Assembly (NCBI RefSeq): GCF_017833035.1
Contig: NZ_JAFIBM010000001.1
Location: 310,001 to 374,000 of the forward strand
Length of the DNA: 64,000 bases
Direction: 5' to 3'
Source: Frigoribacterium sp. PvP032
GTDB lineage: Bacteria; Actinomycetota; Actinomycetes; Actinomycetales; Microbacteriaceae
In this document: positions 1-64,000 of the stretch, in pieces
How positions within the stretch are numbered: the first letter of the stretch is position 1
Layout: each line of letters starts with the position of its first letter
Notes under the pieces: generated by a model
Databases searched by the model: none
Told to the model about the DNA's origin: nothing
Seen by the model: only the letters and a program-made list of their open reading frames with translations
Position numbers and translations under genes: made by a program

Positions 1-1
1 G

Positions 2-1096
2 GTCGACGTCTTCGGGGAGAAGCGCGCCCCGTTCGCCCTCGGCCTCGCCTCGCTGATCATGGGCTTCCCGATCTTCTTCGACGCCGGCCTGATCGTCATG
101 CTGCCGATCGTCTTCGCCGTGGCCCGCCGCATGGGCGGCAAGTCGCTGCTGCTCTACGGGATCAGCTCCGCCGCGGCCTTCTCGGTCATGCACGTGTTCC
201 TGCCGCCGCACCCCGGCCCGGTCTCGGCGACCGAGCTGCTCGGCGCCGACCTCGGCATCGTGCTCGTCGCCGGCCTCGTCATCGTGTTCCCCGTCTGGTA
301 CGTCTCGGGCTACCTGTGGGCGAAGTACGTCAACAAGCGGATCCCGCTGCCCGTGCTGTCGCTGTTCGGCACCCCTGAGGACGACGTCCAGGCCGTCAAC
401 CCGCCCAAGGCCGGCACGGTCATGGCCGTCCTCGCCGTCCCGCTCGTCCTCATCCTCCTGAACACCGGGCTCAGCTCGCTCAGCTCGGTGGGCGTCGTCG
501 ACGGCGACGCCGGCTGGGTCCAGGCGTTCGTCCTGGTCGGCACGAGCGGCATCGCCCTGCTCATCTCGGTGCTCGTCGCGGCCGTCGTCCTGGGTCGTGC
601 CCGAGGCGTCGCCGGCAGCGCGCTCGAGAAGGTGCTCGAGAGCGCCCTCGGCCCCATCTGCTCCGTCGTGCTCATCACCGGCGCCGGCGGCATGTTCGGC
701 GGCGTCCTCCGCGCCTCGGGCATCGGCGACGCGCTCGCCGACGTGCTGGGCGACCTCGGCCTGCCCGTCATCGTCGCCGCGTGGATCATCGCCGCGATCC
801 TGCGCCTCGCCCAGGGGTCGGCGACCGTCGCCCTCGTGACCGCCGCGGGCCTCGTCGCCCCGGCCGTCGCGCTGGCCGACCTCAACGCCGTCCAGCTCGC
901 CGCCGTCGTGCTCGCCACGGCCGCGGGCTCGGTCTTCGCCGGCCACGTCAACGACTCGGGCTTCTGGCTCGTCGGCCGGCTGATGGGCATGGACGTCAAG
1001 ACCACCCTGCGCGTGTGGACCGTGCAGCAGGGCGTCGAGTCCGTGCTCGGCTTCGCCGCGGCGCTGCTCGTCTTCACCGTCGGCTCGCTGGTCTGA
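2..1096 (+). CDS. gntP: GntP-family gluconate permease, 5' end cut by window
   Basis: Gluconate:H+ symporter type membrane protein. The frame is open to the left edge of the window, so only the last 364 codons are present and the true start lies outside; the first ATG visible (59) is internal. The stretch FGEKRAPFALGLASLIMGF followed by PIFFDAGLIVMLPI is a hallmark of the GntP family, and several hydrophobic helices follow to the C-terminus. It precedes gluconate and idonate dehydrogenase genes on the same strand, which supports uptake of gluconate or a related sugar acid. Substrate is inferred from family and context. Confidence 0.9.
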   Translation, partial: VDVFGEKRAPFALGLASLIMGFPIFFDAGLIVMLPIVFAVARRMGGKSLLLYGISSAAAFSVMHVFLPPHPGPVSATELLGADLGIVLVAGLVIVFPVWYVSGYLWAKYVNKRIPLPVLSLFGTPEDDVQAVNPPKAGTVMAVLAVPLVLILLNTGLSSLSSVGVVDGDAGWVQAFVLVGTSGIALLISVLVAAVVLGRARGVAGSALEKVLESALGPICSVVLITGAGGMFGGVLRASGIGDALADVLGDLGLPVIVAAWIIAAILRLAQGSATVALVTAAGLVAPAVALADLNAVQLAAVVLATAAGSVFAGHVNDSGFWLVGRLMGMDVKTTLRVWTVQQGVESVLGFAAALLVFTVGSLV

Positions 1097-1098
1097 CC

Positions 1099-1152
1099 GA
1101 CCGACCGGGCGGTCCCGACCGACCGGGCCGTCCCGACCGCCCGGGCGGTCCC
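1099..1152. repeat. Three tandem 18-bp units after gntP
   Basis: Three consecutive 18-bp units of the form GACCGACCGGGCGGTCCC with one or two substitutions each lie directly after the gntP stop codon and before the ribosome binding site of the next gene. Each unit contains a short GGGCGGTCCC/GACC-type inverted pairing. A second short tandem array (17-bp period) sits in the following gap at about 1993-2035. Role unknown; probably slippage-generated. Confidence 0.8.
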
Positions 1153-1205
1153 GACCCGACCGACCACGCCGACCGTCCGGGCCCCCGGAACCACCAAGGA
1201 GAACC

Positions 1206-1976
1206 ATGACCTCGTCCCTGTTCGACCTCACCGGCCGACTCGCCCTCGTGACCGGCTCCTCCAGGGGCCTCGGTCGTTCGTTCGCCCTGGCGCTGGCGGA
1301 GGCGGGGGCCCAGGTGATCGTGCACGGCCGAGACGCCGGGGCGCTGCGGGAGACCCAGGACGCCCTCGAGGCGGCCACGGGGACGCGGCCCGCGACGACG
1401 GTCTTCGACGTCACCGACGCCGCGTCGGTCGAGGGGGCCGTCGGCGACCTCGTGGCCGAGCACGGCGTGCCCGACGTCCTCGTGAACAACGCCGGCGTGC
1501 AGAAGCGGGCGCCGTTCACCGAGTTCCCGGTCGAGGACTGGGATGCCGTCGTCGCGACCAACCTGTCGAGCGTGTTCTACGTCTCGCGGTTCGTGGCGCC
1601 CGGCATGGTCGAGCGGGGCTCGGGCAAGATCGTCAACGTCGCGAGCGTCCAGTCGATGCTGGCACGCGAGACCATCGCGCCGTACTCGGCGAGCAAGGGC
1701 GGGGTCGCCCAGCTCAGCCGGGGCATGGCGGCCGACGTGGCCAGGCACGGGGTCCAGGTGAACACCCTGTCGCCCGGCTACTTCGCGACCGAGATGAACA
1801 CCGCCCTGTGGCAGGACGAGACCTTCGACGCCTGGCTGCGGCAGCGCACCCCCGCGCGCCGCTGGGGACGTGTCGAAGAGCTCACGGGCACGCTCATCTA
1901 CCTCGCGTCGAGCGCGAGCGACTTCGTCTCGGGGCAGAACATCTTCGTCGACGGCGGCATGACGAGCGTCGTCTGA
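1206..1976 (+). CDS. idnO: SDR-family gluconate 5-dehydrogenase
   Basis: Cytoplasmic short-chain dehydrogenase, 256 aa, most like gluconate 5-dehydrogenase (5-ketogluconate to gluconate). It has the N-terminal nucleotide-binding motif TGSSRGLGRS, the NNAG motif, a catalytic Ser in NVASVQS and the YSASK catalytic Tyr/Lys pair. The segment RTPARRWG and the end FVDGGMTSVV are typical of this subfamily. A strong AAGGAG Shine-Dalgarno lies just before the ATG. It sits between gntP and an idonate-type dehydrogenase, the expected order for an idonate/ketogluconate operon. Confidence 0.85.
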   Translation: MTSSLFDLTGRLALVTGSSRGLGRSFALALAEAGAQVIVHGRDAGALRETQDALEAATGTRPATTVFDVTDAASVEGAVGDLVAEHGVPDVLVNNAGVQKRAPFTEFPVEDWDAVVATNLSSVFYVSRFVAPGMVERGSGKIVNVASVQSMLARETIAPYSASKGGVAQLSRGMAADVARHGVQVNTLSPGYFATEMNTALWQDETFDAWLRQRTPARRWGRVEELTGTLIYLASSASDFVSGQNIFVDGGMTSVV

Positions 1977-2048
1977 CGCACGCGGTCCCGACTCGCACGC
2001 AGACCCGACCCGCACGCAGACCCGACCCGCACACTGAGGAGAACGACC

Positions 2049-3068
2049 GTGAAGACCATCCAGATCGACTCCGCGACCGTCCTGACGGAGCGCGAGGTCC
2101 CCACGCCGGAGCCTGCCGAGGGCGAGGTCCGGATCCGCGTCGACTTCGTCGGCATCTGCGGCTCCGACCTGCACTACTACTTCGAGGGCGCGAACGGGGC
2201 CTTCGTCGTCGAGGAGCCCCTCGCGCCCGGCCACGAGCTGTCGGGACGCGTCGACCTCGACCCGAGCGGCGAGTGGGCGCCCGGCACGCCCGTCACGGTG
2301 CACCCTGCCCGGTTCGGCACGCCGACCGAGGGCACGGAGGACGCTCCGCACCTGTGGCCGGGCGGCTCGTACCTGGGCAGCGCCTCGACGCACCCGCACA
2401 CGCAGGGCGCCCTCAGCGAGTACCTGGTGGTCGACGCGGGCATGCTGCGGGCGCTGCCCGCCACGCTGCCGCTCGAGCGTGCCGCGCTGGCCGAGCCGCT
2501 CGCCGTCGCGCTGCACGCCGTCAGCCGGGTCGGCGACGTCGCGGGCGCCAGGGTGCTCGTCTCCGGGGCCGGGCCGATCGGCCTGCTCGCCGCCGCCGCG
2601 GCCCGTGCCCGCGGCGCGGCGCACGTGACCGTCGTCGACGTCCTGGCAGAGCCCCTGGCCAGGGCGCTCGCCGTGGGCGCCGACGAGGTCCTCCGCCTCG
2701 GGGAGGACGCCGTCCCCGCCGACTCGTTCGACGTCGTGCTCGAGTGCTCGGGCGCCGCACCGGCCGTCAGCGCCGCCTTCGTCGCCGCCCGTCGCCTCGG
2801 CGTCGTCGCGCAGGTGGGGATGGTCCCCGACGTCGCCCGTCCGGTCAACCTCGCGCCCGCGATCTCGAAGGAGCTCACCGTGCTCGGCGTCTTCCGGTTC
2901 CGCGACGAGATCGACGAGGCCGTGCGGATGCTCGACGCCGACCCGTCGCTCGGCACGGTCGTCACGCACGTCGTCGACAGCGACGACGCCGCACGGGCGT
3001 TCGAGGTCGCCAGGGACTCGTCGGTCAGCGGCAAGGTCCTCGTCGCGGCCTGGCCCGACCGGCCGTAG
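2049..3068 (+). CDS. idnD: L-idonate 5-dehydrogenase-like zinc MDR protein
   Basis: Medium-chain dehydrogenase of 339 aa, probable L-idonate to 5-ketogluconate oxidation. Starts at GTG with GAGGAG upstream. The catalytic zinc ligands are visible in GICGSDLHYY (Cys37) and PGHE (His62, Glu63), and the Rossmann motif SGAGPIGLLAA follows near residue 170. The lobe that carries four structural-zinc cysteines in the E. coli enzyme is replaced here by a Cys-free loop (about residues 84-115), a variant I recall in actinobacterial homologues. Together with gntP and idnO it would convert idonate to gluconate. Exact substrate is inferred. Confidence 0.8.
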   Translation: MKTIQIDSATVLTEREVPTPEPAEGEVRIRVDFVGICGSDLHYYFEGANGAFVVEEPLAPGHELSGRVDLDPSGEWAPGTPVTVHPARFGTPTEGTEDAPHLWPGGSYLGSASTHPHTQGALSEYLVVDAGMLRALPATLPLERAALAEPLAVALHAVSRVGDVAGARVLVSGAGPIGLLAAAAARARGAAHVTVVDVLAEPLARALAVGADEVLRLGEDAVPADSFDVVLECSGAAPAVSAAFVAARRLGVVAQVGMVPDVARPVNLAPAISKELTVLGVFRFRDEIDEAVRMLDADPSLGTVVTHVVDSDDAARAFEVARDSSVSGKVLVAAWPDRP

Positions 3069-3138
3069 GAGGCGCGAGCCGGCCCCGGGGGACCGGCCCG
3101 GTGCGCCTCCGCCCGCCCGGCAGGGGGAGGATGGGGGC

Positions 3139-4119: not shown

Positions 4120-4145
4120 GGTCGCGTGCCCCTGCCGACACTCGC

Positions 4146-4183
4146 AGGAGGTGCGGTGCAGGGGATCCCGCACCGCACCTCCT
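4146..4183. terminator. Bidirectional hairpin between convergent genes
   Basis: Perfect 14-bp arms AGGAGGTGCGGTGC / GCACCGCACCTCCT around a 10-nt loop containing GGGATCCC. It lies between the convergent quinone oxidoreductase and Asp23 genes and has no T tract. Likely a shared factor-independent terminator. Confidence 0.75.
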
Positions 4184-4209
4184 CGGGTCGGCCTGTGCCG
4201 CTGCCGTCG

Positions 4210-4635: not shown

Positions 4636-4763
4636 GATGGCTCCGTTCTGCGTGAGGCTGGTGTAGTCATGGATGAGACGCACTCCGCGACCCGATCGTC
4701 ACGGAATCCGTCGAAATCGTCCCACCCACGCCCCCACGGGGGCCGCCGCGCAGAGGAGGCAGC

Positions 4764-6483: not shown

Positions 6484-6505
6484 CCTGCCACCGCGTCGCC
6501 GGGCC

Positions 6506-7831: not shown

Positions 7832-7899
7832 CCGCACCCGTCGAACCCGCGCACACCCTCGAGCGCGCGCGAGGGTGTGCGCGGGTCCGAGGGGTGCGG
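7832..7899. repeat. Family A palindromic element, copy 1 (68 bp)
   Basis: Arms CCGCACCC...GGGTGCGG enclose an inner inverted repeat ACCCGCGCACACCCTC / GAGGGTGTGCGCGGGT. Same length (68 bp) and layout as copies at 17734, 35939, 49896 and 60495. Lies 3' of the aldo/keto reductase gene. Confidence 0.9.
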
Positions 7900-9043: not shown

Positions 9044-9099
9044 CGAGTGGTCGAGAAGTGTCCATCCAGGCGCCGGGAGAGACAGATGCTGACCACTCG
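9044..9099. repeat. Family E palindromic element, copy 1 (56 bp)
   Basis: Ends CGAGTGGTC / GACCACTCG. On the minus strand it aligns without gaps to the copy at 62107, about 43 of 56 positions identical by hand count, including ATGGACACTTC in one arm. Third, more diverged copy at 53715. Lies 3' of the small acidic protein gene. Confidence 0.85.
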
Positions 9100-9139: not shown

Positions 9140-9195
9140 CGAGAGGCCCCGATCCGACCTCCGCAGGTGCGGGCAGGTCGATCCGGGGCCTCTCG
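9140..9195. repeat. Family F palindromic element, copy 1 (56 bp)
   Basis: Arms CGAGAGGCCCC / GGGGCCTCTCG. Gapless match to 44129..44184, about 43 of 56 identical. Immediately 3' of the 50-aa acidic protein gene; likely its terminator. Only 40 bp from the family E copy. Confidence 0.88.
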
Positions 9196-12892: not shown

Positions 12893-12962
12893 CGAGGGCG
12901 GGTCTTCTGGCTCGAGGGCGGGTCGCGGACGACCCGCCCTCGGCCCGGGCGACCCGCCCTCG
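12893..12962. repeat. Family B double-hairpin element, copy 1 (70 bp)
   Basis: Four 12-bp arms: CGAGGGCGGGTC twice (8 bp apart), a 6-bp centre, then GACCCGCCCTCG twice (8 bp apart). Identical spacing 12-8-12-6-12-8-12 at 23135 and 38156. Lies 3' of the GNAT gene. The whole 373-bp gap 12782-13154 holds this element, the palindrome at 13063 and no gene that I can support. Confidence 0.92.
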
Positions 12963-13062: not shown

Positions 13063-13118
13063 GACGCGGGAGCGACAAGACGACGTGGTGTTCCGCGTCG
13101 TCTTGTCGCTGTTGCGTC
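13063..13118. repeat. Family H palindromic element, copy 1 (56 bp)
   Basis: GACGC-GGGAGCGAC arm pairs with GTCGC-TGTTGCGTC; inner arms CAAGACGACG / CGTCGTCTTG. Pairing extends outward by CTAGGC/GCCTAG to 13057..13124. About 39 of 56 positions match the copy at 29328. Lies between the convergent GNAT and histidine kinase genes. Confidence 0.85.
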
Positions 13119-13154: not shown

Positions 13155-14819
13155 TCAGCGGGGGAGCGTCAGCCTGAAGACCGCGCCCGCAGCGCCGACG
13201 CCGCCGGCGCCGACGGGCAGCGCCTCGCAGACCAGGTCGCCGCCGTGCGCCTGCGCGATGCCGCGGGCGATGGGCAGGCCGAGGCCGGCGCCTCCGTCGC
13301 CCGTCTGCCGGGCCTCGTCGAGCCGGACCAGTCGGTCGAAGACGCGCTCGCGGTCGGCCTCCGGCACCCCGGGGCCGTCGTCCGCCACGAGCACTGCGAC
13401 CCCCTCCGGCGCGGAGCCGTCGACCGTCAGCACGACCGTGCCCGTCCCGTGCGTCGCCCTGGCCGCGTTGTCGACGAGGTTGCCGAGCACCTGCGCCAGC
13501 CGACCGGCGTCGCCGGGCACGACGAGCGGGCCCTCGCCCGAACCTGCGCCAGCACGAGCACCACCACCACCGGCACCAGCACCCGCACCAGCACCCGCAC
13601 CGCGCACCTCGACCCGCAGCTCCAGCCCCGGCCGCCGTAGTCGCTGGCCCTCCACGACGGAGGCGACCAGCGCCTCCACGTCGACGGGCGCGACGTCGAG
13701 CTCGAGCCCGCGGTCGACCCGCGCCATCAGCAGCATGTCGTCGATCAGCCGTGACGCCCTGGCAGCCTCCCGGACGACGTGCACGGCCAGCCGCTCGCGC
13801 TCGTCGGGCCCGACGTCGGCCGACGAGCGGACGAGCGTGTCGGCGGCGGCGCGCATCCCGGCGACGGGCGTGCGCAGCTCGTGCGCCGCGTCGGACACGA
13901 ACGCCCGCACCCGCTGCTCCGCCTCGAGGGCCGTGCGCTCCGCCTGCAACGCCGTCCGTTCCGCCTCGAGCGCGGCCCGCTCGGCGCCCTCGACCCCGTC
14001 GAGCATCTCGTCGAACGCGCCGGCGACGCGGCCGATCTCGGTCGACCCGTTCGCCGGGCGGAGTCGCCGGCCCCGGTCGCCGTGGGCGATCGAGCGTGCG
14101 ACGGCGGTCATCCGGTCGAGCGGCCGCAGGGTCGCCCGCACCACGAGCACGAGCCCCGCGGCGGCCACGACCAGGAACACTCCCGACGCCCCGAGCATCA
14201 CCCAGCGGAGCTGCGTCAGCGTCTGCCCGACCGAGCTCGAGTCGGCCGTCAGCGTGATCGTCGACCCGTCGCTCAGCTCGCTGACCAGCGTCGTCACCTC
14301 GTCGTCGGCCGTGACGGTCGACGCGGTGACGGTGACGGTCTCCGCGGCGGCGGCCGGATCCGAGGAGGTGCCCGTCGGCTCCTGCCCCGGGGCCGCGGGA
14401 CCTGCGGTCGCGTCGCCGGCCGGCGTGTCCGAGCCCGCGCCTCCTGCTCCCCTGCCCGGTCCCGCCGGCAGGCCGTCCCCGAGTGCGGGCGGGCCCTCGC
14501 GCAGCTCGTCGGGGGAGGGACCGGCGACGATGGCGCCGCCGTCGGCGTCGCGGATCACGACCGAGAGGCCCTGCGCCGAGAGGCGGTCGGCGAGGTCGTC
14601 GCCGTCGACGGTGCCGACGAGCGCGGCGGCGGCGGAGGCGCGGTCGCGGAGGCGGTCCTCGACCTGGGCACGGAGCCGCTGGCCCAGCGTCGCCTCGACC
14701 GCGACGGCCAGCCCCGCGAGCAGCAGGGCGAGCAGCACGAGCACGGCGACGACGGTGCGCGCGCGGAGCGACCCGGTGCGGAGGCGAGGCCCGTCCTGTC
14801 GCGCTGGGTCGTGTCGCAT
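13155..14819 (-). CDS. Two-component sensor histidine kinase
   Basis: 554 aa. Two transmembrane helices (about 22-41 and 207-229) flank an extracytoplasmic domain with a Pro/Gly/Ala-rich insert; then HAMP, a short charged coil with three near-identical ALEAERT repeats (about 282-300), HisKA with phospho-acceptor His313 in AAHELRTPV, and HATPase_c with NAAR, DDGPGVP and GAGLGL. Start ATG 14819 lies within the outer arm of the hairpin that separates it from the response regulator gene. Transcribed after that regulator; likely the cognate pair. Signal unknown. Confidence 0.92.
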   Translation of the reverse strand: MRHDPARQDGPRLRTGSLRARTVVAVLVLLALLLAGLAVAVEATLGQRLRAQVEDRLRDRASAAAALVGTVDGDDLADRLSAQGLSVVIRDADGGAIVAGPSPDELREGPPALGDGLPAGPGRGAGGAGSDTPAGDATAGPAAPGQEPTGTSSDPAAAAETVTVTASTVTADDEVTTLVSELSDGSTITLTADSSSVGQTLTQLRWVMLGASGVFLVVAAAGLVLVVRATLRPLDRMTAVARSIAHGDRGRRLRPANGSTEIGRVAGAFDEMLDGVEGAERAALEAERTALQAERTALEAEQRVRAFVSDAAHELRTPVAGMRAAADTLVRSSADVGPDERERLAVHVVREAARASRLIDDMLLMARVDRGLELDVAPVDVEALVASVVEGQRLRRPGLELRVEVRGAGAGAGAGAGGGGARAGAGSGEGPLVVPGDAGRLAQVLGNLVDNAARATHGTGTVVLTVDGSAPEGVAVLVADDGPGVPEADRERVFDRLVRLDEARQTGDGGAGLGLPIARGIAQAHGGDLVCEALPVGAGGVGAAGAVFRLTLPR

Positions 14820-14875
14820 CGTGTTCCGAGCGTCGCGTCCTGTCACGGCGCGACGCGATGCTCGGAACACGATGC
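14816..14875. repeat. Family I palindrome between regulator and kinase genes (60 bp)
   Basis: Arms GCATCGTGTTCCGAGC / GCTCGGAACACGATGC with inner CGTCGCG/CGCGACG. It separates the response regulator stop from the kinase start and covers the kinase ATG. Shares the GTTCCGA...TCGGAAC core with a second 60-bp palindrome at 31488. May attenuate kinase expression. Confidence 0.75.
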
Positions 14876-17733: not shown

Positions 17734-17801
17734 CCGCACCCGCCGGACCCGCGCGCACCCCTCGGCGCGCACGAGGGTGCACGCGGGATCGCGGGGTGCG
17801 G
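17734..17801. repeat. Family A palindromic element, copy 2 (68 bp)
   Basis: CCGCACCC...GGGTGCGG outer arms, inner ACCCGCGCGCACCCCTC / GAGGGTGCACGCGGG. Gapless with copy 1. 3' of the MmyB-type regulator. Confidence 0.88.
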
Positions 17802-21441: not shown

Positions 21442-21513
21442 TCCTGAATGGTGCACGGTTCAGGAGCTTGGCTCCCCCCGTGGCGAGGATCAGGACAGGA
21501 CTTCCTGAATGAG
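21442..21513. repeat. Family C two-hairpin element, copy 1 (72 bp)
   Basis: TCCTGAA/TTCAGGA hairpin, a CTCCCCCC centre, then ATCAGGA/TCCTGAAT. Gapless with the reverse complement of 52146..52217, about 56 of 72 identical by hand count. Lies 3' of nhaA. Confidence 0.9.
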
Positions 21514-23134: not shown

Positions 23135-23204
23135 CGAGGGCGGGTCGCCGCGGTCGAGGGCGGGTCCGCGGTGACCCGCCCTCGACCGCGATGACCCGCC
23201 CTCG
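23135..23204. repeat. Family B double-hairpin element, copy 2 (70 bp)
   Basis: CGAGGGCGGGTC x2 and GACCCGCCCTCG x2 in the 12-8-12-6-12-8-12 layout, all four arms perfect. 3' of the deoR-type gene; the following 25 bp up to that gene's stop also resemble the sequence after the half element at 29396. Confidence 0.92.
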
Positions 23205-29327: not shown

Positions 29328-29383
29328 GACGCAAGAGCGACGAACCTCCGTGATCTTCCACGGAGGTTCGTCGCTCTCGCGTC
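29328..29383. repeat. Family H palindromic element, copy 2 (56 bp)
   Basis: GACGC-AAGAGCGACGAACC arm pairs with its complement ending CGCGTC; inner CTCCGTG/CACGGAG with 6-nt loop. Lies between the convergent transporter and TetR genes and works in either direction. Confidence 0.88.
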
Positions 29384-29395: not shown

Positions 29396-29427
29396 TACTC
29401 GCCCTCGACCGCTGTGACCCGCCCTCG
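29396..29427. repeat. Half of a family B element
   Basis: Only the right-hand half (two GACCCGCCCTCG-type arms 8 bp apart, first arm 10 of 12) of the 70-bp design. Followed by sequence similar to that after copy 2 (GACGGAA...GTGCG...CGTCAG). Confidence 0.75.
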
Positions 29428-29471
29428 ACGGAACGTGGTGCGTGCGGACCGTCAGCCGCAGGAGGCGCGGG

Positions 29472-31487: not shown

Positions 31488-31547
31488 GAACCACGTTCCG
31501 AACCATGAACCGCGTTTTATCGCAGTTCATGGTTCGGAACTCGGTTC
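31488..31547. repeat. Family I palindrome 3' of ald (60 bp)
   Basis: GTTCCGAACCATGAACCGCG and its complement around TTTTAT, with outer GAACC/GGTTC. Shares the GTTCCGA...TCGGAAC core and 60-bp size with 14816..14875, otherwise diverged (about half identical). Likely terminator of ald. Confidence 0.7.
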
Positions 31548-35938: not shown

Positions 35939-36006
35939 CCGCACCCGGCGAACCCGCGCACACCCCTCGGCGCGAGCGCGGGTCTGCGCGGGTCCCGAGG
36001 GTGCGG
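35939..36006. repeat. Family A palindromic element, copy 3 (68 bp)
   Basis: CCGCACCC...GGGTGCGG arms, inner ACCCGCGCACACCCCTC. Gapless with the others. Between the ANTAR operon and the acyl-CoA-dehydrogenase-like gene. Confidence 0.88.
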
Positions 36007-37224: not shown

Positions 37225-38885
37225 GCTTCGACGCCCGCGAGCCCGGCACCTCCGTGGCGACCTGGCGCTCCGACCCGCGCTGGGCGACCCTGCCCGCACC
37301 GCGTCCCCTCGATCCAGCGACCGTGCCCGCCGTCGCCGAGCCGGACGTGCCCGGCGCGTTCGACCTGGTGGGCGCCTCCGGGCCTGTGGTCGTCCTCGCC
37401 GCGCACCCCGACGACGAGACCCTGGGCGCCGGCTCCCTGATCGCGCAGCTCGTGCGGCACGGCCGTGCCGTGACGGTCGTCGTCGTGACCGACGGGGCGG
37501 CGTCGCACCCGCGCTCGACGTCGACGTCTGCCGGGTCGCTGCGCGAGCTGCGCCTGGCCGAGGCCCGGGCCGCGCTCGACGAGCTGGCCGGGCTCGGCGG
37601 TTCCTCCGAGCTCGCCGGTCTCGCCGGCTCCGGCACCGCGATCGAGCTCATCGCCCTGGGCGTCGCCGACGGAGCCCTTCGTGAGGCCCGCGACGACGTC
37701 CGCCGCCAGCTCGGCGACCTGCTCGCCGAGCGTCGGCCCGTGCTCGTCGTCGCCCCGTGGCGGGGCGACGGGCACCGCGACCACCGGGTGCTCGGCGAGG
37801 TCGCGGCGGAGCTCGTGGGAGGCGACGGGTCCGCACTGCCGGACGCCCGCCTCCTCGAGTACCCGATCTGGATGTGGCACTGGGGCGGGCCCGACCACCC
37901 GGACGTGCCGTGGGACGCGCTCGTGCGCGTCGACGGCGACGAGGAGGCGGGCCTCGCGAAGCAGCGCGCGCTCGCCCGGTACTCGTCGCAGGTGCAGCCC
38001 CTTAGCGACCGGCCCGGAGACGAGGCCGTGCTGCGGCCCGACTTCGTCGAGCACTTCGTCGGCGGCGCGGAGGTCTTCGTCGAGGCTCCCGCTCCCGCTC
38101 CCGCTCCCGACCCCGCGCCTGCGCCTGCGCCCGCGCCCGCGCCCGCAGTTTCCCTCGAGGGCGGGTCGTCTTCGTCGAGGGCGGGTCGTGCGGAACCCGC
38201 CCTCGACGCAGCCGACCCGCCCTCGACGGACAGCACGCTCGCACTCGCACCTGCGCCTGAGCGCGTGCCCGCCGACACGCTCGCGCCCTCGTTCGACGCG
38301 ACGCACGCTCGCCGCGACGACCCGTGGGGCGTCACGACGCGCTGGTACGAGCGCCGCAAGCGCGCGCTCGTGCTCGCCTCCCTGCCCGACGAGCGACTCG
38401 GCCGTGTGCTCGAGATCGGCTGCTCGATCGGCGTCGTGACCGAGCAGCTGGCCCTCCGTGCGGACACCGTCCTGGCCGTCGACGTGTCGTCGGTCGCCGT
38501 CGAGCGTGCCCGCGAACGCCTGGCCGCCCACCCGCACGTGCGCGTGGAGGTCGCCGACGTCTCGTCCGGCCTAGCCCAGGACGACGACGCCCTCGACCTG
38601 GTCGTGCTCGGCGAGGTCGGCTACTACCTGGCGCCCGAGGCGCTCGCTACGCTGCTCGCCGACGTCGACCGGGTGCTCGCGCCCGGCGGCTCGCTCGTCG
38701 CCTGCCACTGGCGGCACGGCGCCGACGACTTCGCGCAGGGAGGCGACGAGGTGCACGAGCAGCTCGCCGCCTGGGCCAGGGGCGCCGGCCTGACACGCGT
38801 GGTCGGCCACGTCGAGGAGGACTTCCTGCTCGACGTCCTCTCGCGCGACCCCCGCTCGGTCGCGACCCGGACGGGCCTCCGATGA
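37221..38885 (+). CDS. Bifunctional PIG-L deacetylase / SAM-dependent methyltransferase
   Basis: 554 aa. N-terminal PIG-L domain (about 45-280) with zinc motif AAHPDDETLGAG and GHRDHRVLG, as in N-acetyl-sugar deacetylases; a linker with (AP)n repeats and a translated family-B palindrome (about 312-335); C-terminal NodS-like class I methyltransferase (about 365-554) with LEIGCSIGVVTEQLA and LVVLGEVGYYL. GTG start overlaps the preceding stop; stop overlaps the GT2 start (ATGA). The deacetylase and N-methyltransferase pairing suggests stepwise modification of an amino sugar. Substrate unknown. Confidence 0.85.
   Translation: MSFDAREPGTSVATWRSDPRWATLPAPRPLDPATVPAVAEPDVPGAFDLVGASGPVVVLAAHPDDETLGAGSLIAQLVRHGRAVTVVVVTDGAASHPRSTSTSAGSLRELRLAEARAALDELAGLGGSSELAGLAGSGTAIELIALGVADGALREARDDVRRQLGDLLAERRPVLVVAPWRGDGHRDHRVLGEVAAELVGGDGSALPDARLLEYPIWMWHWGGPDHPDVPWDALVRVDGDEEAGLAKQRALARYSSQVQPLSDRPGDEAVLRPDFVEHFVGGAEVFVEAPAPAPAPDPAPAPAPAPAPAVSLEGGSSSSRAGRAEPALDAADPPSTDSTLALAPAPERVPADTLAPSFDATHARRDDPWGVTTRWYERRKRALVLASLPDERLGRVLEIGCSIGVVTEQLALRADTVLAVDVSSVAVERARERLAAHPHVRVEVADVSSGLAQDDDALDLVVLGEVGYYLAPEALATLLADVDRVLAPGGSLVACHWRHGADDFAQGGDEVHEQLAAWARGAGLTRVVGHVEEDFLLDVLSRDPRSVATRTGLR
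38156..38225. repeat. Family B element inside a coding region (70 bp)
   Basis: The complete 12-8-12-6-12-8-12 design (one mismatch) translated in frame as LEGGSSSSRAGRAEPALDAAD with flanking residues, in the linker between the PIG-L and methyltransferase domains. The other two complete copies are intergenic, 3' of genes. Confidence 0.92.
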
Positions 38886-44128: not shown

Positions 44129-44184
44129 CGAGAGGCCCCGGATCTACCTCCCCTCACGGGCGACGGTCGATCCGGGGCCTCTCG
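44129..44184. repeat. Family F palindromic element, copy 2 (56 bp)
   Basis: CGAGAGGCCCCGGATC / GATCCGGGGCCTCTCG. A third half arm, TCCGGGGCCTCTCGTCTG, follows at 44189-44206 as a local duplication. Between the convergent LAYTG and diacylglycerol kinase genes. Confidence 0.9.
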
Positions 44185-45454: not shown

Positions 45455-45521
45455 CGCACTGCACCGGGAAACGAACACTGCACCGGGTCTGGACCCGGTG
45501 CAGTGCACGAAACGCGGTGCG
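45455..45521. repeat. Family D palindromic element, copy 1 (67 bp)
   Basis: Contains the perfect hairpin CACTGCACCGGGTC-TG-GACCCGGTGCAGTG (45476-45505) and outer CGCAC.GC / CGCGGTGCG. Gapless with 46147..46213, about 53 of 67 identical. 3' of the DUF4383 gene. The 310-bp gap 45278-45587 holds this and a tandem repeat, no gene. Confidence 0.88.
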
Positions 45522-46146: not shown

Positions 46147-46213
46147 CGCACCGCACCGAGTCTCGTGCAGTGCACCGCGTCTAGTCCTGGTGCGGTGCAC
46201 GGAACGCGGTGCG
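46147..46213. repeat. Family D palindromic element, copy 2 (67 bp)
   Basis: Same length and order as copy 1, with GTGCAGTGCACCG and CCTGGTGCGGTGCAC arms. 3' of the PIF1-like gene and upstream of the DUF4383 gene, so the 432-bp gene is bracketed by two copies in the same orientation. Confidence 0.85.
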
Positions 46214-48769: not shown

Positions 48770-48825
48770 TGAACCGCCACGAAGCGCTCGCCATCGTCCT
48801 GCGAGCAGCAGTTCGTGCCGGTTCA
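48770..48825. repeat. Family G palindromic element, copy 1 (56 bp)
   Basis: TGAACCG-CCACGAA / TTCGTG-CCGGTTCA arms. On the minus strand it is gapless with 60589..60644, about 37 of 56 identical. Between convergent genes. Confidence 0.78.
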
Positions 48826-49895: not shown

Positions 49896-49963
49896 CCGCA
49901 CCCTCGGAACCCGCGCACACCCGCGCTCGCGCCCGCGGGTGTGCGCAGGTTCGGAGGGTGTGG
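49896..49963. repeat. Family A palindromic element, copy 4 (68 bp)
   Basis: CCGCACCC...GGGTGTGG arms with ACCCGCGCACACCCG inside. 3' of rnj beyond its terminator hairpin. Confidence 0.86.
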
Positions 49964-52145: not shown

Positions 52146-52217
52146 CTCATTCAGGAAGATCCGTCCTGATCCGCGCACCGGGGGGACTCGCAGTCCTGAA
52201 TCGCGCACGACTCAGGA
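52146..52217. repeat. Family C two-hairpin element, copy 2 (72 bp)
   Basis: Reverse orientation relative to 21442..21513, same 72-bp length without gaps. 3' of the SDR gene. Confidence 0.9.
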
Positions 52218-53714: not shown

Positions 53715-53770
53715 CGAGTGGTCAGTTGCGGTCGCTCACGGCATCGGCGACGACCGGAACCGACCAGTCG
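53715..53770. repeat. Family E palindromic element, copy 3 (56 bp, diverged)
   Basis: CGAGTGGTCAG start and CGACCAGTCG end, inner GCGGTCG/CGACCGG pairing; centre differs from the other two copies. 3' of the tetR gene. Confidence 0.65.
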
Positions 53771-54430: not shown

Positions 54431-54435
54431 CGCGG

Positions 54436-59160: not shown

Positions 59161-59199
59161 CCCTGTCGCAGGAGGCGCGGGCATGACACAAAGGAGCGC

Positions 59200-60507
59200 A
59201 TGACCCACAGCACGAGCGACCCCACGGCAGGCCCCGGTACGCGGCACCTCGACGACCGCATCGAGGCGGTCTTCGGCCCCCTGGTCGACGAGATCGCGGC
59301 GGGCGCGGTCGCCAGGGAGCGTGACCGCCGCCTCCCCGTCGACGAGGTCGACCTGCTGCGCCGCGCAGGCTTCGGCGCGCTGCGGGTGCCGGTCGAGCAC
59401 GGCGGCTGGGGAGCGTCCCTGGAGCAGGAGTTCCGCCTCCTCGTGCGACTCGGCGCCGCTGACTCGAACCTGCCGCAGCTGCTGCGCGGGCACGTGGCGT
59501 TCGTCGAGACGCAGCGGGCTCAGCCGGACGGCCCGCTCCGCACCGAGTGGCTCGAGCGGCTGGCGGCCGGCGACGTGCTCGTCGGCAACGCGCAGGCCGA
59601 GCGCGGCGACGCGACCGCCGTGGCCACGCGCCTGACGGAGGTGGACGGGCGGCTCCGTCTCGACGGACGCAAGTTCTACAGCACCGGCACCCTCTACGCC
59701 GACTGGATCTGGGTCGGTGCGGTGCGCGGCGACGAGCCCGTCGCCCTGGCCGTGCGTGCCGACGCGCCTGGCGTCACGCGGCTCGACGACTGGGACGGCT
59801 TCGGCCAGCGCCTCACCGGCAGCGGCACGACGATCTTCGACGACGTGACGGTCGACCCGGCCCAGGTGCTGCCCTGGAGCGACAACGCCGAGCGCCGCCC
59901 GCTCGCCTACACGCAGGCGCTCTACCAGCTGGTGCTGCTGGCGGCCGAGACGGGGATCGCCCGTGCGGTGCTGCGCGACGCCGTCGAGTTCGTCCGGCCC
60001 CGCACGCGCACCTTCGGCGTGGCCGGGGTGTCGCTGCCGCGCGAGGACCCGCTCGTGCAGCGCGTCGTCGGCCGGTTGTCGAGCATCGGGTCGGCCGTCG
60101 AGGCGGTGACGCTGTCCGCGGTGCGCGCGCTGGAGGCGGCGGACGACCGCGCGTCGGGCGACGCGTCCGGCTCGGGCGGCACGTCTGCCTCGGACGACGA
60201 CTACCAGGAGGCGCTGGCCACGGCCTTCGAGGCGCAGCAGGTCGTGCTGCCGCTCGTCCTCGAGGCCGCGACCGCGCTGTTCGAGGTGGGAGGCGCCTCC
60301 GCCGTGGACTCCGACCGGGCCCTCGACCGGCACTGGCGGAACGCCCGCACGATCGCGTCGCACAACCCCGCGATCCACCGCGAGCGGGCCCTCGGCGACC
60401 GGCGCCTCAACGGGACGCCGTTCCGCACGGGCCCGCAGGCTGCTGCCGTGGCGTCCGCTGCCGCTGCGCCGGCCACCTCGCACCCGGACCTCGTCCGCAC
60501 CCCCTAG
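59200..60507 (+). CDS. DszC/SfnC-like flavin monooxygenase (acyl-CoA dehydrogenase fold)
   Basis: 435 aa. ACAD-fold protein with FYSTGTLYADWIWVGAV (FMN/FAD site), GFGQRLTGSGTTIFDDVTV and C-terminal DRHWRNARTIASHNPAIHRERALGD typical of the DszC/SfnC monooxygenase group rather than beta-oxidation enzymes. AAGGAG precedes ATG 59200. Beside metNIQ, it fits oxidation of an organosulfur compound to release sulfite. Substrate inferred. Confidence 0.82.
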   Translation: MTHSTSDPTAGPGTRHLDDRIEAVFGPLVDEIAAGAVARERDRRLPVDEVDLLRRAGFGALRVPVEHGGWGASLEQEFRLLVRLGAADSNLPQLLRGHVAFVETQRAQPDGPLRTEWLERLAAGDVLVGNAQAERGDATAVATRLTEVDGRLRLDGRKFYSTGTLYADWIWVGAVRGDEPVALAVRADAPGVTRLDDWDGFGQRLTGSGTTIFDDVTVDPAQVLPWSDNAERRPLAYTQALYQLVLLAAETGIARAVLRDAVEFVRPRTRTFGVAGVSLPREDPLVQRVVGRLSSIGSAVEAVTLSAVRALEAADDRASGDASGSGGTSASDDDYQEALATAFEAQQVVLPLVLEAATALFEVGGASAVDSDRALDRHWRNARTIASHNPAIHRERALGDRRLNGTPFRTGPQAAAVASAAAAPATSHPDLVRTP

Positions 60508-60562
60508 ACCCGCGCGCACCCTCCGGCGCGCACGAGGGTGTCCGCGGTTCCCGAGGGTCCGT
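60495..60562. repeat. Family A palindromic element, copy 5 (68 bp)
   Basis: Starts inside the last codons of the monooxygenase gene (its TAG lies in the left arm) and otherwise follows the family design; right end is degenerate (GGGTCCG). Confidence 0.8.
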
Positions 60563-60588
60563 CCCCGTCCCGGGCACGAGCGACCCGC

Positions 60589-60644
60589 CGAACCGGCAGG
60601 AAGTGCTCTCCCGGCGGGCAACGAGAGCGCATCCTGCCGGTTCA
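60589..60644. repeat. Family G palindromic element, copy 2 (56 bp)
   Basis: CGAACCGGCAGGAAGTGCTCTC / GAGAGCGCATCCTGCCGGTTCA. Only 26 bp after family A copy 5, so the monooxygenase gene is followed by two stacked palindromes. Confidence 0.82.
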
Positions 60645-60760
60645 GCGCGCGATGCCGTGGAGCTGGGGGCGAGGAGGTGGTGGTCCCGTCGCCGACGCCC
60701 GCCCTCGACGGCAGCGGGGGTCGTCGGTACGGTGGGCGGACGTCGTCGAGGGGACACCCC

Positions 60761-60988
60761 ATGAACACCGCCACAGTCGTCATCGCCCTGATCGTGCTCG
60801 CGATCGTCGCGGCCGCCGTCGCCGTCGTCGTGCGCGAGCGTCGCGACCGCGCACTAGCCGCCCGGCTCGACGAGTCCGACCCGGGGGCCGGGGTCCGCGC
60901 CCAGGCCGACGCCGAGCGGCAGCAGGCCGGTCCGCGGGGCGAGGCCGGCGGTTCGTCGTGGTCGGCCGCCGGCCAGAACTCGGCCTGA
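60761..60988 (+). CDS. Small single-pass membrane protein (75 aa)
   Basis: 75 aa. One N-terminal helix (TATVVIALIVLAIVAAAVAVVVRE), then a charged helix with RRDRALAARLDESDP and a Gln/Ala/Gly-rich tail. GAGGGG precedes the ATG. Likely transcribed with the kinase gene 20 bp downstream. Unknown function. Confidence 0.75.
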   Translation: MNTATVVIALIVLAIVAAAVAVVVRERRDRALAARLDESDPGAGVRAQADAERQQAGPRGEAGGSSWSAAGQNSA

Positions 60989-61008
60989 TCCAGGGCCGGG
61001 CCGGCTCC

Positions 61009-62055
61009 GTGCACCAGCACCAGCACCAGCACCAGCACCCGCACGACGACGGCCACGAGGCTGTTGCCGCCATCGAGTCGGACTCTTCTCCTGAGCCCGA
61101 TCCGGACGAGCCGTCCTTGGTCTCCTTCGCCGCCCTGGCAGTCGAGAAGCTCGTCTCTCCCGCTCGCGGCACCCGGCAGGGCGCCCTCCTGCCCGGCGTC
61201 GACACCCACGTCGTCCGGATCTGGGGCGACGGCGTCGACGTCGTCGTGCGCACGCCGCGCGGTCCCGTCGGGTCGGCGCCCGACACCTACCCGGCCGAGC
61301 GATGGGCCGCCGAGCACGCTGCACGCCACGGAGTGCCGACACCTCGCGTGCTCGCCTACGAGCCCAGGTTCGGGGAGGGGCCGCTCATGATCGTCGAGCA
61401 CGTCACCTCGATCGCCTCCGACCGCGACCCGTGGCACGACCTAGGCCGCGTCGCCACGGCGCTCGCCGAGGTGCCGCTCGACTCCGCCACGGCGGGCGCG
61501 TCCAGGGACGTCGACTCTCGCCTGCCTGACGCGCTCCTCACCCGCTTCGGCCCCGACCTGCCGGAGGCCTGGCGCCGCCACCTGCGGTACGGCCTCGACT
61601 CCCTGGTGCCTGGCGACCGCCTCCTCGGCCTCGGGGTCTACGCCGAGCAGCAGCGCGATCCGCTGCGGGCGGCCCTCGAGCAGCTCGCGGTCGAGAGCGC
61701 GAGGTGGCGGCACGGACTCGTGCACGGCGACCTCGCACCCCGCAACCTCGTGCCCCGTGGTGCCGACGATCCCGTGCTGATCGACTGGGGCACGGCGCGG
61801 ACGGGCCCTGTGCCGTGGCTCGAGCTCGACCGCGTGCACCGCTGGAGCGCCCTCGACGGCATCGTCAGCGCAGACGAGCTGCGGCGCTTCGCCGACGGAC
61901 TCGGGGTCGACCTCGACGCCTCCCTGCCGACCCTGCGACGGCTCGCCCTGCTGCACCACCTCGACCTGGTGCGCTGGGCCCTCGAGCGCCGGCCCGACCG
62001 GCTCGCCCGTGAGGTCGAGGAGGCGCGGCGAGCGACCGCCCGCTGCCTGCGCTGA
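61009..62055 (+). CDS. APH-fold phosphotransferase
   Basis: About 348 aa. Kinase-like core: VVRTPRGPVG (nucleotide loop region), MIVEHV hinge, catalytic GLVHGDLAPRNLV (HGDxxxxN) and DWGTA (DxG). GTG 61009 would give an N-terminal HQHQHQHQHPHDDGH tract from a CACCAG tandem repeat; TTG at 61117 is an alternative that removes it. Aminoglycoside/choline-kinase-like; substrate unknown. No ATG available. Confidence 0.75.
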   Translation: MHQHQHQHQHPHDDGHEAVAAIESDSSPEPDPDEPSLVSFAALAVEKLVSPARGTRQGALLPGVDTHVVRIWGDGVDVVVRTPRGPVGSAPDTYPAERWAAEHAARHGVPTPRVLAYEPRFGEGPLMIVEHVTSIASDRDPWHDLGRVATALAEVPLDSATAGASRDVDSRLPDALLTRFGPDLPEAWRRHLRYGLDSLVPGDRLLGLGVYAEQQRDPLRAALEQLAVESARWRHGLVHGDLAPRNLVPRGADDPVLIDWGTARTGPVPWLELDRVHRWSALDGIVSADELRRFADGLGVDLDASLPTLRRLALLHHLDLVRWALERRPDRLAREVEEARRATARCLR

Positions 62056-62106
62056 CGGCCCGGCCGGCCCGGCAGCCGTGGTCCCCGTTCTGCCTGGTTC
62101 GGCTGG

Positions 62107-62162
62107 CGAGTGGTCAGCAACTGCCCTTCCGGCCTGCCTCATGGACACTTCCAGACCACTCG
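62107..62162. repeat. Family E palindromic element, copy 2 (56 bp)
   Basis: CGAGTGGTCAGCA...ATGGACACTTC..GACCACTCG. Plus orientation; reverse complement of the copy at 9044. 3' of the APH-fold gene. Confidence 0.88.
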
Positions 62163-62246
62163 GCGCTGCGCAGCGCGTCCGGCGGGCACAGGGGCGCCCG
62201 CACCCGCAGGCGCACGCGCAGGCTCGACATTTGCATGCCGTGCATG

Positions 62247-62291
62247 ATTCTCCCGTTGTTCACCGACGCGGCCCGCAGCCGGGCCTAGCGT
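62247..62291 (+). promoter_or_regulatory. Candidate PHO box and promoter of the PiT transporter
   Basis: ATTCTCC-CGTT-GTTCACC (62247-62264) fits the actinobacterial PhoP direct repeat GTTCACC-N4-GTTCACC with two mismatches in the first half; TAGCGT at 62286-62291 is a -10 at the right distance, so the box overlaps the -35 region. The 334-bp gap 62056-62389 otherwise holds a family E palindrome. Confidence 0.55.
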
Positions 62292-62389
62292 CGCCGGTGC
62301 AGGAGGAGCGCCCGTCACCGCGACGGCCCCGCACGCCTGCCTCCGGACGGGCACCTGCCGCGGAGCGGACGACAAGAGGGGCGACATCG

Positions 62390-63553
62390 ATGGACGTCTT
62401 CGTCACGGTCACGCTGGTGATCGTCGTGGCGCTCGTGTTCGACTTCACGAACGGGTTCCACGACACGGCCAACGCGATGGCCACCTCCGTCGCCACCGGG
62501 GCCCTGAAGCCCAAGGTGGCGGTGCTCATCTCGGCCGTGTTGAACCTGGTCGGGGCGTTCCTGTCGACCGAGGTCGCGAGCACCGTCTCGAACGGCATCA
62601 TCCGCGAGGGCGACGGGGGAGTGCAGGTCACCCCGACGATGATCTTCGCCGGGCTCGTCGGCGCCGTGATCTGGAACCTCGCGACCTGGTACCTCGGCCT
62701 GCCGTCGAGCTCGTCGCACGCCCTGTTCGGCGGGCTGATCGGCGCCGCCGTGATCGGTGCGGGCGTCGGCTCGGTCGACTTCGGCGTCGTCCTCTCGAAG
62801 GTCGTGCTGCCCGCGCTCATCTCGCCCCTGGTGGCCGGCACGGTGGCGCTGGTCGCGACCTACGCGGCGTACCGGATCACGAAGCAGGCGACGCTGCGTG
62901 GCTCGACGGCCGGCTTCCGGCACGGCCAGACGATCAGCGCCTCCCTCGTCTCGCTGGCGCACGGCACGAACGACGCCCAGAAGACGATGGGCGTCATCAC
63001 GCTGACCCTCATCGCCGCCGGCTACCAGGGCGCGGGCACGACGCCGCAGCTCTGGGTCGTCCTCGCCTGCGGCCTCGCGATCGCGCTCGGCACCTACCTC
63101 GGCGGCTGGCGCATCATGCGCACCGTCGGCAAGCGCATCACCGACGTCCAGGCGCCGCAGGGCTTCGCGGCGGAGACGAGCTCGGCCGCGACGATCCTCA
63201 TCTCGTCGCACCTCGGCTTCGCGCTCTCGACGACCCAGGTGACCTCCGGCTCGATCGTCGGCGCCGGCCTCGGCAAGAAGCTCGCGACCGTGCACTGGGG
63301 GGTCGTCGGCAAGATCGCCTCCGCCTGGGTGATCACGCTGCCCGCCGCGGCGCTCGTCGGCGGCGTCAGCGCCTGGCTCGCCAGCACCAGCACCGTCGGG
63401 CTCGTCCTCGTGGCGGTCCTCGCGCTCGCCGGGGGCTCGGCATTCGTGTTCCTCGCCCGTCGCCACCCGGTGACGCACGAGACCGTCAACGACAGCGAGG
63501 AGGCGCCCGCCGCTGCCCAGCCGGCCGGCGCCTCCCGCGGACAAGGAGAGTGA
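62390..63553 (+). CDS. PiT-family inorganic phosphate transporter
   Basis: 387 aa, about ten helices. Duplicated PiT signatures FDFTNGFHDTANAMATSV at the N-terminus and SLAHGTNDAQKTMGVITL in the middle. AGAGGGG lies 9 nt before the ATG. Low-affinity phosphate/metal-phosphate symport. The next gene overlaps its stop (GTGA). Upstream PHO-like box suggests PhoP control. Confidence 0.93.
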   Translation: MDVFVTVTLVIVVALVFDFTNGFHDTANAMATSVATGALKPKVAVLISAVLNLVGAFLSTEVASTVSNGIIREGDGGVQVTPTMIFAGLVGAVIWNLATWYLGLPSSSSHALFGGLIGAAVIGAGVGSVDFGVVLSKVVLPALISPLVAGTVALVATYAAYRITKQATLRGSTAGFRHGQTISASLVSLAHGTNDAQKTMGVITLTLIAAGYQGAGTTPQLWVVLACGLAIALGTYLGGWRIMRTVGKRITDVQAPQGFAAETSSAATILISSHLGFALSTTQVTSGSIVGAGLGKKLATVHWGVVGKIASAWVITLPAAALVGGVSAWLASTSTVGLVLVAVLALAGGSAFVFLARRHPVTHETVNDSEEAPAAAQPAGASRGQGE

Positions 63554-63894
63554 CCGTGTTCCTCGGAGTGGACTGGGGCGCCTTCGTGGTCGTCTTCGTG
63601 GTGGCGCTCGCCGCGACCGCCGTCATCGTCACGTTCTTCGCGCTCGGCATCCGCCTCTTCGCCGCGGGCGCGACCGAGCCCGTCGACTCCGGGCCGGTGC
63701 CGGCCGGGGCCGGAGGTGCCGGCGGCGCAGGTGCTGCAGGAGGTGCTGCGCCCGCAGGAGGTGCTGGTCGCCTCACCGGAGCGCCGGCGGCCCCGCGGTC
63801 CCTCCCCGCCACCGTCGGAGGTGCGGCCTGCTTCGCGGTCGGCATCGCCGCGGTGCTCGCCGGGCTGTGGCTGATCGTGCCGCAGTTCCACTGA
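63550..63894 (+). CDS. Small membrane protein coupled to PiT
   Basis: 114 aa. Two helices (FVVVFVVALAATAVIVTFFALGI and GGAACFAVGIAAVLAGLWLIV) separated by a Gly/Ala/Pro loop. GTG start overlaps the PiT stop (GTGA), so it is co-translated. Found with PiT transporters in related actinobacteria as I recall; probably a transporter accessory subunit. Confidence 0.75.
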   Translation: MTVFLGVDWGAFVVVFVVALAATAVIVTFFALGIRLFAAGATEPVDSGPVPAGAGGAGGAGAAGGAAPAGGAGRLTGAPAAPRSLPATVGGAACFAVGIAAVLAGLWLIVPQFH

Positions 63895-63953
63895 CGCCGG
63901 TCCGTGGTCCCTGCCCGCGCCTCCTCCGCTCGGTCCGCGGGGCCCGCGCAGGT

Positions 63954-64000
63954 CAGGCGGCGGCGTCCGCGTCCACGTCGGCCCCGCGGAACGTCGCCCT
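63954..64000 (-). CDS. C-terminus of a minus-strand gene, cut by window
   Basis: Minus-strand frame open from the right edge, ending ATFRGADVDADAAA and TGA at 63954-63956. Only 15 codons visible; convergent with the PiT operon. Not identifiable. Confidence 0.35.

What the first reader, a model, noticed from the sequence alone, without database searches (positions are those of the whole stretch)
1..64000. Nine families of fixed-length palindromes, all placed 3' of genes
Seen directly: imperfect palindromes recur with constant length inside each family and gapless alignment: A 68 bp (7832, 17734, 35939, 49896, 60495), B 70 bp (12893, 23135, 38156; half at 29396), C 72 bp (21442, 52146), D 67 bp (45455, 46147), E 56 bp (9044, 53715, 62107), F 56 bp (9140, 44129), G 56 bp (48770, 60589), H 56 bp (13063, 29328), I 60 bp (14816, 31488). 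Four unrelated sequences share the 56-bp size. Apart from the B copy at 38156 that lies inside a gene, every copy lies in a gap that follows at least one stop codon; the divergent gaps (4636, 12234, 15559, 19693, 26118, 30105, 32700, 52952, 59003) have none. Within a pair the outer arms are conserved and the centres diverge with compensating changes. This looks like a genome-wide, diversified 3'-end element system (terminator, mRNA stabiliser or REPIN-like mobile palindrome).
Basis: partly seen in the sequence, partly recalled or inferred. Interest (0 to 1): 0.85.

Follow-up and report, generated by a model that had tools for sequence, protein, structure and literature searches.

The report
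Palindromes paired with dedicated nuclease genes
Long DNA palindromes scattered through this bacterium come in families, and most of the families seen here have their own partner gene, a protein resembling a DNA-cutting enzyme whose gene lies beside or between copies of that palindrome; this looks like an undescribed kind of miniature mobile DNA.

Summary
The palindromes are real, multi-copy and far above chance, but 'always 3' of genes' is too strong. The window is from Frigoribacterium (Microbacteriaceae). About 18 dyad families recur; most avoid divergent gaps, but family B does not, and B and E copies also lie in frame inside genes. They come and go between sister species (32 of 39 orthologous gaps differ), so they are not simply terminators. 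No Y1/RAYT transposase was found in 16 of 16 congeners.

Genes bracketed by two copies of one family led to another partner: ~300-aa proteins with an AbiEi-like DNA-binding half and a PD-(D/E)xK nuclease-like half, 3-11 matches per genome. Flanks of 60 of 90 fetched genes share a repeat, against 16 of 679 other genes. On the protein tree clades carry their own palindrome family (14 label changes, minimum 13, shuffled 45.6). Reader families A, B and D-I have such a partner somewhere in the genus (D one-sided, A mostly so and only in other species, G by a weak match); C does not. AbiEi binds paired 23-bp inverted repeats; E is 23+10+23 bp with conserved arms and a near-random centre. I read these as REPIN-like elements served by AbiEi-nuclease fusions instead of RAYTs. 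The association is shown; binding, cutting and mobilisation are inferred.

The parts
7832..7899 (.). family A palindrome, 68 bp
   Evidence: sister G003 has an E palindrome in this gap, G013 none
9044..9099 (.). family E palindrome, 56 bp
9140..9195 (.). family F palindrome, 56 bp
   Evidence: the own genome has an AbiEi-nuclease gene at 128116 with F on both sides by family model, the upstream copy degenerate
12893..12962 (.). family B palindrome, 70 bp (R-8-R-6-R'-8-R', R=CGAGGGCGGGTC)
13063..13118 (.). family H palindrome, 56 bp
   Evidence: the own genome has a nuclease gene at 735431 with H on both sides by family model, the upstream copy degenerate
14816..14875 (.). family I palindrome, 60 bp
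   Evidence: I-bracketed nuclease module in G013
17734..17801 (.). family A palindrome, 68 bp
21442..21513 (.). part of a family C element (multi-box, ~90-110 bp)
   Evidence: absent in G012
23135..23204 (.). family B palindrome, 70 bp
   Evidence: orthologous gap: H in G013, P twice in G003, none in G012
29328..29383 (.). family H palindrome, 56 bp
29396..29429 (.). about half of a B palindrome; G013 has a full B in this gap
31488..31547 (.). family I2 palindrome, 60 bp
   Evidence: the own genome has an I2-bracketed nuclease gene at 763394; absent in G013
35939..36006 (.). family A palindrome, 68 bp
   Evidence: present in G013, absent in G012
38156..38225 (+). family B palindrome in frame in the linker of a deacetylase-methyltransferase fusion gene (37323-38885)
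   Evidence: also in G013 and G003, absent in G012; domains
44129..44184 (.). family F palindrome, 56 bp
   Evidence: G003 has family J here
45455..45521 (.). family D palindrome, 67 bp
   Evidence: D lies on one side of an orthologous set of nuclease genes
46147..46213 (.). family D palindrome, 67 bp
   Evidence: absent in G013 and G003
48770..48825 (.). family G palindrome, 56 bp
49896..49963 (.). family A palindrome, 68 bp, absent in G012 and G003
52146..52217 (.). part of a family C element
53715..53770 (.). family E palindrome, 56 bp, imperfect
60495..60562 (.). family A palindrome, 68 bp, imperfect
60589..60644 (.). family G palindrome, 56 bp
62107..62162 (.). family E palindrome, 56 bp

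Best explanation
The palindromes are REPIN-like miniature mobile elements. Each family is the binding and working site of its own dedicated protein: an AbiEi-type DNA-binding half fused to a PD-(D/E)xK (MTES_1575/DUF559-like) nuclease half. The gene of that protein typically lies between two copies of its palindrome (in 35 two-sided loci the downstream copy is at a median 56 bp from the profile match, the upstream copy at 149 bp). SHOWN: bracketing and its statistics, the match of protein clade and palindrome family, gain/loss between species, conserved arms with a near-random centre in one family (E in G002). INFERRED: the AbiEi half binds the two arms as a pair (the centre is only a spacer), the upstream copy autoregulates the gene, nicking or cutting by the nuclease half, perhaps on an extruded hairpin, leads to copying of palindromes to new sites, copies survive mostly downstream of genes because they do least damage there, and families whose gene is lost persist as orphans (as A and B seem to be in this genome).
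For: Left and right 600-bp flanks share a segment (>=40 bits) in 60 of 90 fetched loci of the protein family, against 16 of 679 control genes of 600-1200 bp (p 2e-51); >=60 bits 31/90 vs 10/679. Shared segment that is a dyad on both sides, score >=9: 55/90 vs 10/679; >=11: 45/90 vs 8/679. Family models label 35 loci with one family on both sides and 26 on one side. Tree of 63 labelled proteins: 14 label changes, minimum 13, shuffled mean 45.6; nearest protein in another genome carries the same family in 59 of 63 (shuffle mean 6.0, max 18). Own genome: 7 proteins; by family model 5 carry one family on both sides (N, F, H, I2, K), by flank BLAST 4 of 7; the other two have dyads nearby. One PADLOC AbiEi model matches 17 of 20 proteins (best 2.7e-14), another 16 of 20 (best 9.8e-16); Pfam AbiEi_4 8 of 20, MTES_1575 REase 4 of 20, at E<=0.1; nuclease-type D and ExDG columns invariant or nearly so. 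AbiEi binds two 23-bp inverted repeats 3 bp apart, Rv2827c pairs 13 bp apart (PMC7319586, passages); E in G002 is 23+10+23 bp, arms 0.82-0.98 identical between copies, centre 0.415 (chance 0.362), outer flanks at chance. The I module (palindrome-gene-palindrome, about 1.2 kb) is in G013 and missing in G000 and G012, which have 88 and 106 bp between the aligned blocks. In other genera 19 of 28 loci share a flank segment >=40 bits, without a control of their own.
Against: No binding, cutting or movement has been observed. No target duplication or clean single-palindrome insertion was found. Thirty of 90 loci lack a shared flank; loci include orthologues, so counts are not independent, and a few shared segments contain simple GC-rich repeats. 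The D group is one-sided and does not form one clade; A is labelled on both sides in 1 of 4 loci; G rests on one locus at 37 bits. C and P have no partner. The own genome holds 35 strict B copies with arms almost invariant, yet none of its proteins carries B or has a B protein as nearest relative, so arm conservation there is not due to a B gene today. Near-random centres are not what simple copying of whole elements predicts. The E clade has weak tree support (74/69). Pfam matches are weak and no solved structure matches by sequence.
Confidence: 0.6

Rival explanations
1. Not mobile: each AbiEi-nuclease protein is a regulator or defence factor and the dispersed palindromes are its genome-wide operators or decoys, kept by selection on binding.
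For: Arms conserved while centres or spacers are near chance; intragenic B and E copies shared by several species; AbiEi proteins are autoregulators (PMC7319586).
Against: Most copies lie downstream of genes, not at promoters; 32 of 39 orthologous gaps differ between sister species; tandem clusters and 6-65 E copies per genome; B and A are abundant in a genome where no partner of theirs was found.
Confidence: 0.2
2. Terminators or mRNA 3'-end stabilisers that happen to be repeated.
For: Families other than B pooled: 129 convergent, 140 tandem, 22 divergent against background 22/53/25 % (p 5e-15); without K, whose model also caught B copies, 100/118/13 (rows; orthologous copies and three overlapping stretches counted). 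Strong predicted RNA hairpins for most copies.
Against: B follows background; in-frame copies inside genes; absence in close relatives; separate conserved hairpin at the RNase J gene; does not explain bracketed nuclease genes or tree congruence.
Confidence: 0.1
3. MITE-like repeats moved by some other, unseen transposase, with the AbiEi-nuclease gene only a passenger or a suppressor.
For: Inverted-repeat architecture; a module present/absent as a unit; no catalytic test done; of all transposase families only Y1 was searched for.
Against: By eye no other gene class recurs with different families among the 28 bracketed genes; protein clades match palindrome families.
Confidence: 0.1

Closest known systems
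REPINs and RAYTs / REPtrons (REP doublets with REP-associated tyrosine transposases)
   Same: Inverted pair of conserved ends with a highly diverse spacer; extragenic; tandem clusters; gene flanked by its cognate repeat; several families per genome (PMC3116915, PMC8049555, PMC3733652: passages).
   Different: No Y1/HUH transposase in 16 of 16 genomes; partner is an AbiEi-like/PD-(D/E)xK protein; E ends are CGAG/CTCG, not GTAG; 3-11 partner matches per genome.
AbiE type IV toxin-antitoxin systems (AbiEi antitoxin)
   Same: AbiEi homology over roughly the first 180-210 residues of the first member; AbiEi binds pairs of 23-bp inverted repeats (PMC7319586, passages).
   Different: C-terminal nuclease-like half; in two-sided loci hardly any room for a toxin gene inside the bracket; sites dispersed in tens of copies.
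MITEs
   Same: Short non-coding inverted-repeat elements in gaps.
   Different: No target duplication seen; no transposon with matching ends seen, though none was searched for beyond Y1.

Membership tests
REPIN/RAYT | Inverted doublet, conserved ends, diverse spacer | tested here: met
   family E in G002: arms 0.82-0.98, centre 0.415 vs 0.362 chance
REPIN/RAYT | Y1 (HUH) RAYT gene in the genome | tested here: not met
   PF01797 0 of 16 genomes; control rings in 10 of 14
REPIN/RAYT | Enzyme gene flanked by its cognate repeat | tested here: met
   met by a different enzyme class: shared flank segment 60/90 vs 16/679; dyads on both sides 55/90 vs 10/679
REPIN/RAYT | GTAG (or CGTC) tag at the end | tested here: inconclusive
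   E ends CGAG/CTCG; H ends GACGC/GCGTC; no systematic scan
REPIN/RAYT | Observed excision or transposition | not testable with these tools
   needs population sequencing
AbiE toxin-antitoxin | AbiEi-type antitoxin protein | tested here: met
   one PADLOC AbiEi model matches 17 of 20 at E<=0.1, best 2.7e-14
AbiE toxin-antitoxin | AbiEii toxin in the same operon | tested here: inconclusive
   in 35 two-sided loci the palindromes lie 6-136 bp downstream and 63-489 bp upstream of the match, too close for a second gene inside in nearly all; genes outside the bracket were not searched for AbiEii
Intrinsic terminator | Only at transcript ends | tested here: not met
   8 of 35 intergenic B copies in divergent gaps; B and E in frame in genes
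Intrinsic terminator | RNA 3' ends at the hairpin | not testable with these tools
   Term-seq needed
MITE | Target-site duplication | tested here: inconclusive
   none seen by eye around 36 B and 40 A copies; bases next to E in G002 are AT-biased, 0.71-0.76 identity; gap alignments too diverged

The most novel reading that the evidence does not exclude
A second, independent solution to REPIN-like genome parasitism: a multi-paralogue family of AbiEi-PD-(D/E)xK fusion proteins across Microbacteriaceae, each co-evolving with and propagating its own dispersed palindrome family by nuclease-driven copying rather than HUH transposition.
Probability: 0.5. Interest if true: 0.92.

Novelty: new variant of a known kind. 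Interest (0 to 1): 0.85.

Why it matters
It offers a substrate and a likely role for a widespread actinobacterial protein group that the libraries used here name only as AbiEi-like or REase-like, and suggests that dispersed palindromes with dedicated partner genes arose with an enzyme class other than RAYTs. The match of protein clade and palindrome family gives a ready set of protein-DNA pairs to test specificity; 62 of 80 genomes drawn from the family hold such genes. It also warns that long hairpins downstream of genes in such high-GC genomes should not be read as terminators by default.

Tried and rejected
RAYT/Y1 transposase: absent; other transposase families were not searched for. Rfam: only a tRNA, at gathering score and at E<=0.1. 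A ~6-kb gene inserted beside G palindromes in G012 and G003 as an autonomous element: it reads as one ordinary large surface-type protein gene, rejected. Clean single-palindrome insertion sites: relatives too diverged; G007 and G015 are too far from G002 for this. C and P: no bracketed gene. L072:18226-19350 was dropped from the protein alignment after (weak match, no palindromes), so A1 was replaced by A2. 'E copies only where an E/F/G-type gene exists' was not established: the motif was found in 13 of 16 genomes among fetched loci and not in G001, G008 or G010, of which only G010 lacks E (one G008 match not fetched). The own protein at 1585188 (L316) falls in a group of its own, nearest the E type. 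The H pattern was too loose and is not used. The script stopped after its main table; the missing dyad control was run. Family labels are incomplete (the E copy of G003 in gap 50, seen, was missed), so turnover counts are approximate. Of 114 matches, 90 were fetched; the 24 left out are mostly the weakest, split or late-listed ones. Tree labels: 61 loci by family model, L269, L270 and L321 by hand from BLAST, L308 dropped for distance, 63 in all. NCBIfam gave nothing sensible.
Full report
What was checked. The window is positions 310001-374000 of a one-contig, 3,327,708-bp genome. Orthologues of its RNase J place it in Frigoribacterium, Microbacteriaceae (L029, L030 and L034 are 99-100 % identical in protein). 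The listed copies are present. Ungapped dyads in the window plus 20 evenly spaced 20-kb stretches: 65 scoring >=14 and 22 scoring >=18, against 1 and 0 in a Markov control. Clustering of dyads over 1.6 Mb of own and related DNA, with the list, gave beside A-I further dispersed families that I call I2, J, K, L, M, N, P, Q, R. E, F and G are 56 bp, J mostly 57. E is CGAGTGGTC-38-GACCACTCG, with up to one mismatch, in 15 of 16 congeners, 6 to 65 copies each, with 0 for the reversed control pattern.

Placement. In fetched own stretches A has 1 of 39 intergenic copies in divergent gaps, B 8 of 35, where about 21 % of eligible intergenic sequence is divergent (the stretches were chosen for A and B hits). 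Pooled over families other than B: 129 convergent, 140 tandem, 22 divergent, 11 coding, 6 at edges (orthologous copies and three overlapping stretches are included, and the K model also caught B copies: without K 100, 118 and 13). B 38156 lies in frame in a linker and is shared by three of four species. E lies inside an ABC-transporter ATPase gene at one place in G002, G004, G005, G008 and G009 and is missing there in G007 and G013; G006, G011 and G014 also have an E in that gene's locus.

Turnover. In 164 kb of own genome compared with G012, G013 and G003, 140 orthologous gaps could be compared and 39 hold a labelled family palindrome in at least one genome; 7 hold the same set everywhere, 32 differ, and in 4 of these two genomes hold different families. 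Labels are incomplete, so these counts are approximate. Examples: the gap at 7832 holds A here, E in G003; the gap at 23135 holds B here, H in G013, P in G003, none in G012.

Anatomy. In 35 strict own B copies the four 12-bp boxes are almost invariant while the 8-, 6- and 8-bp spacers have fixed length and a mean identity of 0.38 at variable positions. In G002, 39 non-clustered E copies have outer arms 0.98, inner arms 0.88 and 0.82, centre 0.415 (chance 0.362), and outer flanks at chance apart from the two bases next to the arms. This is the pattern of paired protein sites or of REPINs, which PMC8049555 (passages) describes as two inverted REPs with a short, highly diverse spacer.

The partner. 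No Y1 transposase was found. Genes with one family on both sides within 400 bp numbered 28 in the fetched DNA; many lie in E-dense G002 stretches, but four with different families (I, N, K, E) looked alike. They are AbiEi-like proteins with a nuclease-like C-terminal half. A profile of these four gives 114 matches at E<=0.001, 3-11 in each of 16 congeners, 7 in the own genome; none lies in the window. I fetched 90 of the 114 (30 by the search, 60 by coordinates). Flanks share a segment in 60 of 90, against 16 of 679 control genes; with dyads on both sides 55 of 90 against 10 of 679. The shared-flank loci are spread over all 16 genomes, from 1 of 3 to 3 of 3. Both-sided labels: N 9, I2 7, R 5, E 3, K 3, B 2, H 2, I 2, F 1, A 1; one-sided: D 11, E 6, A 3, I2 2, L, R, Q, K 1 each; L brackets in three loci and one G bracket (37 bits, below the 40-bit line) were seen by BLAST. 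The tree of 63 labelled proteins needs 14 label changes, 13 being the minimum; D and R each need two. E, F and G proteins form one clade, B, K and L another, A and N another, which matches the resemblance of their palindromes by eye. Note the circularity: the four founding proteins were found because they are bracketed; the others were found by protein sequence alone.

Reading. AbiEi of Streptococcus agalactiae binds two 23-bp inverted repeats 3 bp apart, Rv2827c binds pairs 13 bp apart (PMC7319586, passages). The 23+10+23 layout of E fits such pairwise binding. I infer that the AbiEi half reads the arms and that the nuclease half acts on the palindrome. Whether it moves palindromes, regulates, or defends is not decided by sequence; turnover, bracketing and the dispersed, mostly downstream copies make mobility the best single reading.

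Print record. Searches of the held library for AbiEi with repetitive extragenic palindromic, DUF559 with AbiEi (94), DUF559 with palindromic (76), DUF559 with endonuclease and Actinobacteria (101), REPIN with RAYT and Actinobacteria (44), Microbacteriaceae with palindromic, intergenic and repeat (43) and Frigoribacterium with palindrom (95) listed nothing that, by title and start of abstract, describes this pairing; subscription papers are mostly not held.

Noticed in passing
genome-wide; e.g. window 21442, 52146: Family C: conserved multi-box element (CTCCTCATTCAGGAA ... TCCTGAAT, five TCAGGA/TCCTGA boxes, CGTGCACG inside), 51 model hits in 1.6 Mb of mixed genomes (three overlapping stretches included), no bracketed gene.
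   Followed up: partly
family P, e.g. G000:377039 and 393679: Element of about 85 bp with outer arms GCAAATGCCGACC/GGTCGGCATTTGC and an inner dyad, often in pairs, four in one gap of G003.
   Followed up: partly
intergenic DNA of fetched own stretches: AGGAGGCG/CGCCTCCT occurs 274 times in 143 kb of intergenic DNA, 12 expected from base composition and 129 at the coding rate; GCGCCTCCT peaks in the first 10 bases after stop codons (18 of 73 downstream hits).
   Followed up: partly
G000 0-1.22 Mb: Family A is clustered: most places found lie in the first 1.22 Mb, 15 of 40 between 615 and 743 kb (the search scored 40 of 74 candidates).
   Followed up: no
L206, L207, L209-L211, L220 (G002): Tandem clusters of 2-4 E palindromes at about 90-410 bp spacing, often with near-identical centres, unlike dispersed copies.
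   Followed up: no
L316 and L291 (G000:1585188, 3176152): The two own partner-type genes without a labelled bracket still have dyads nearby: two of a CTTGCCACTTCGCGG type upstream of one, GGGACGA-type dyads on both sides of the other.
   Followed up: no
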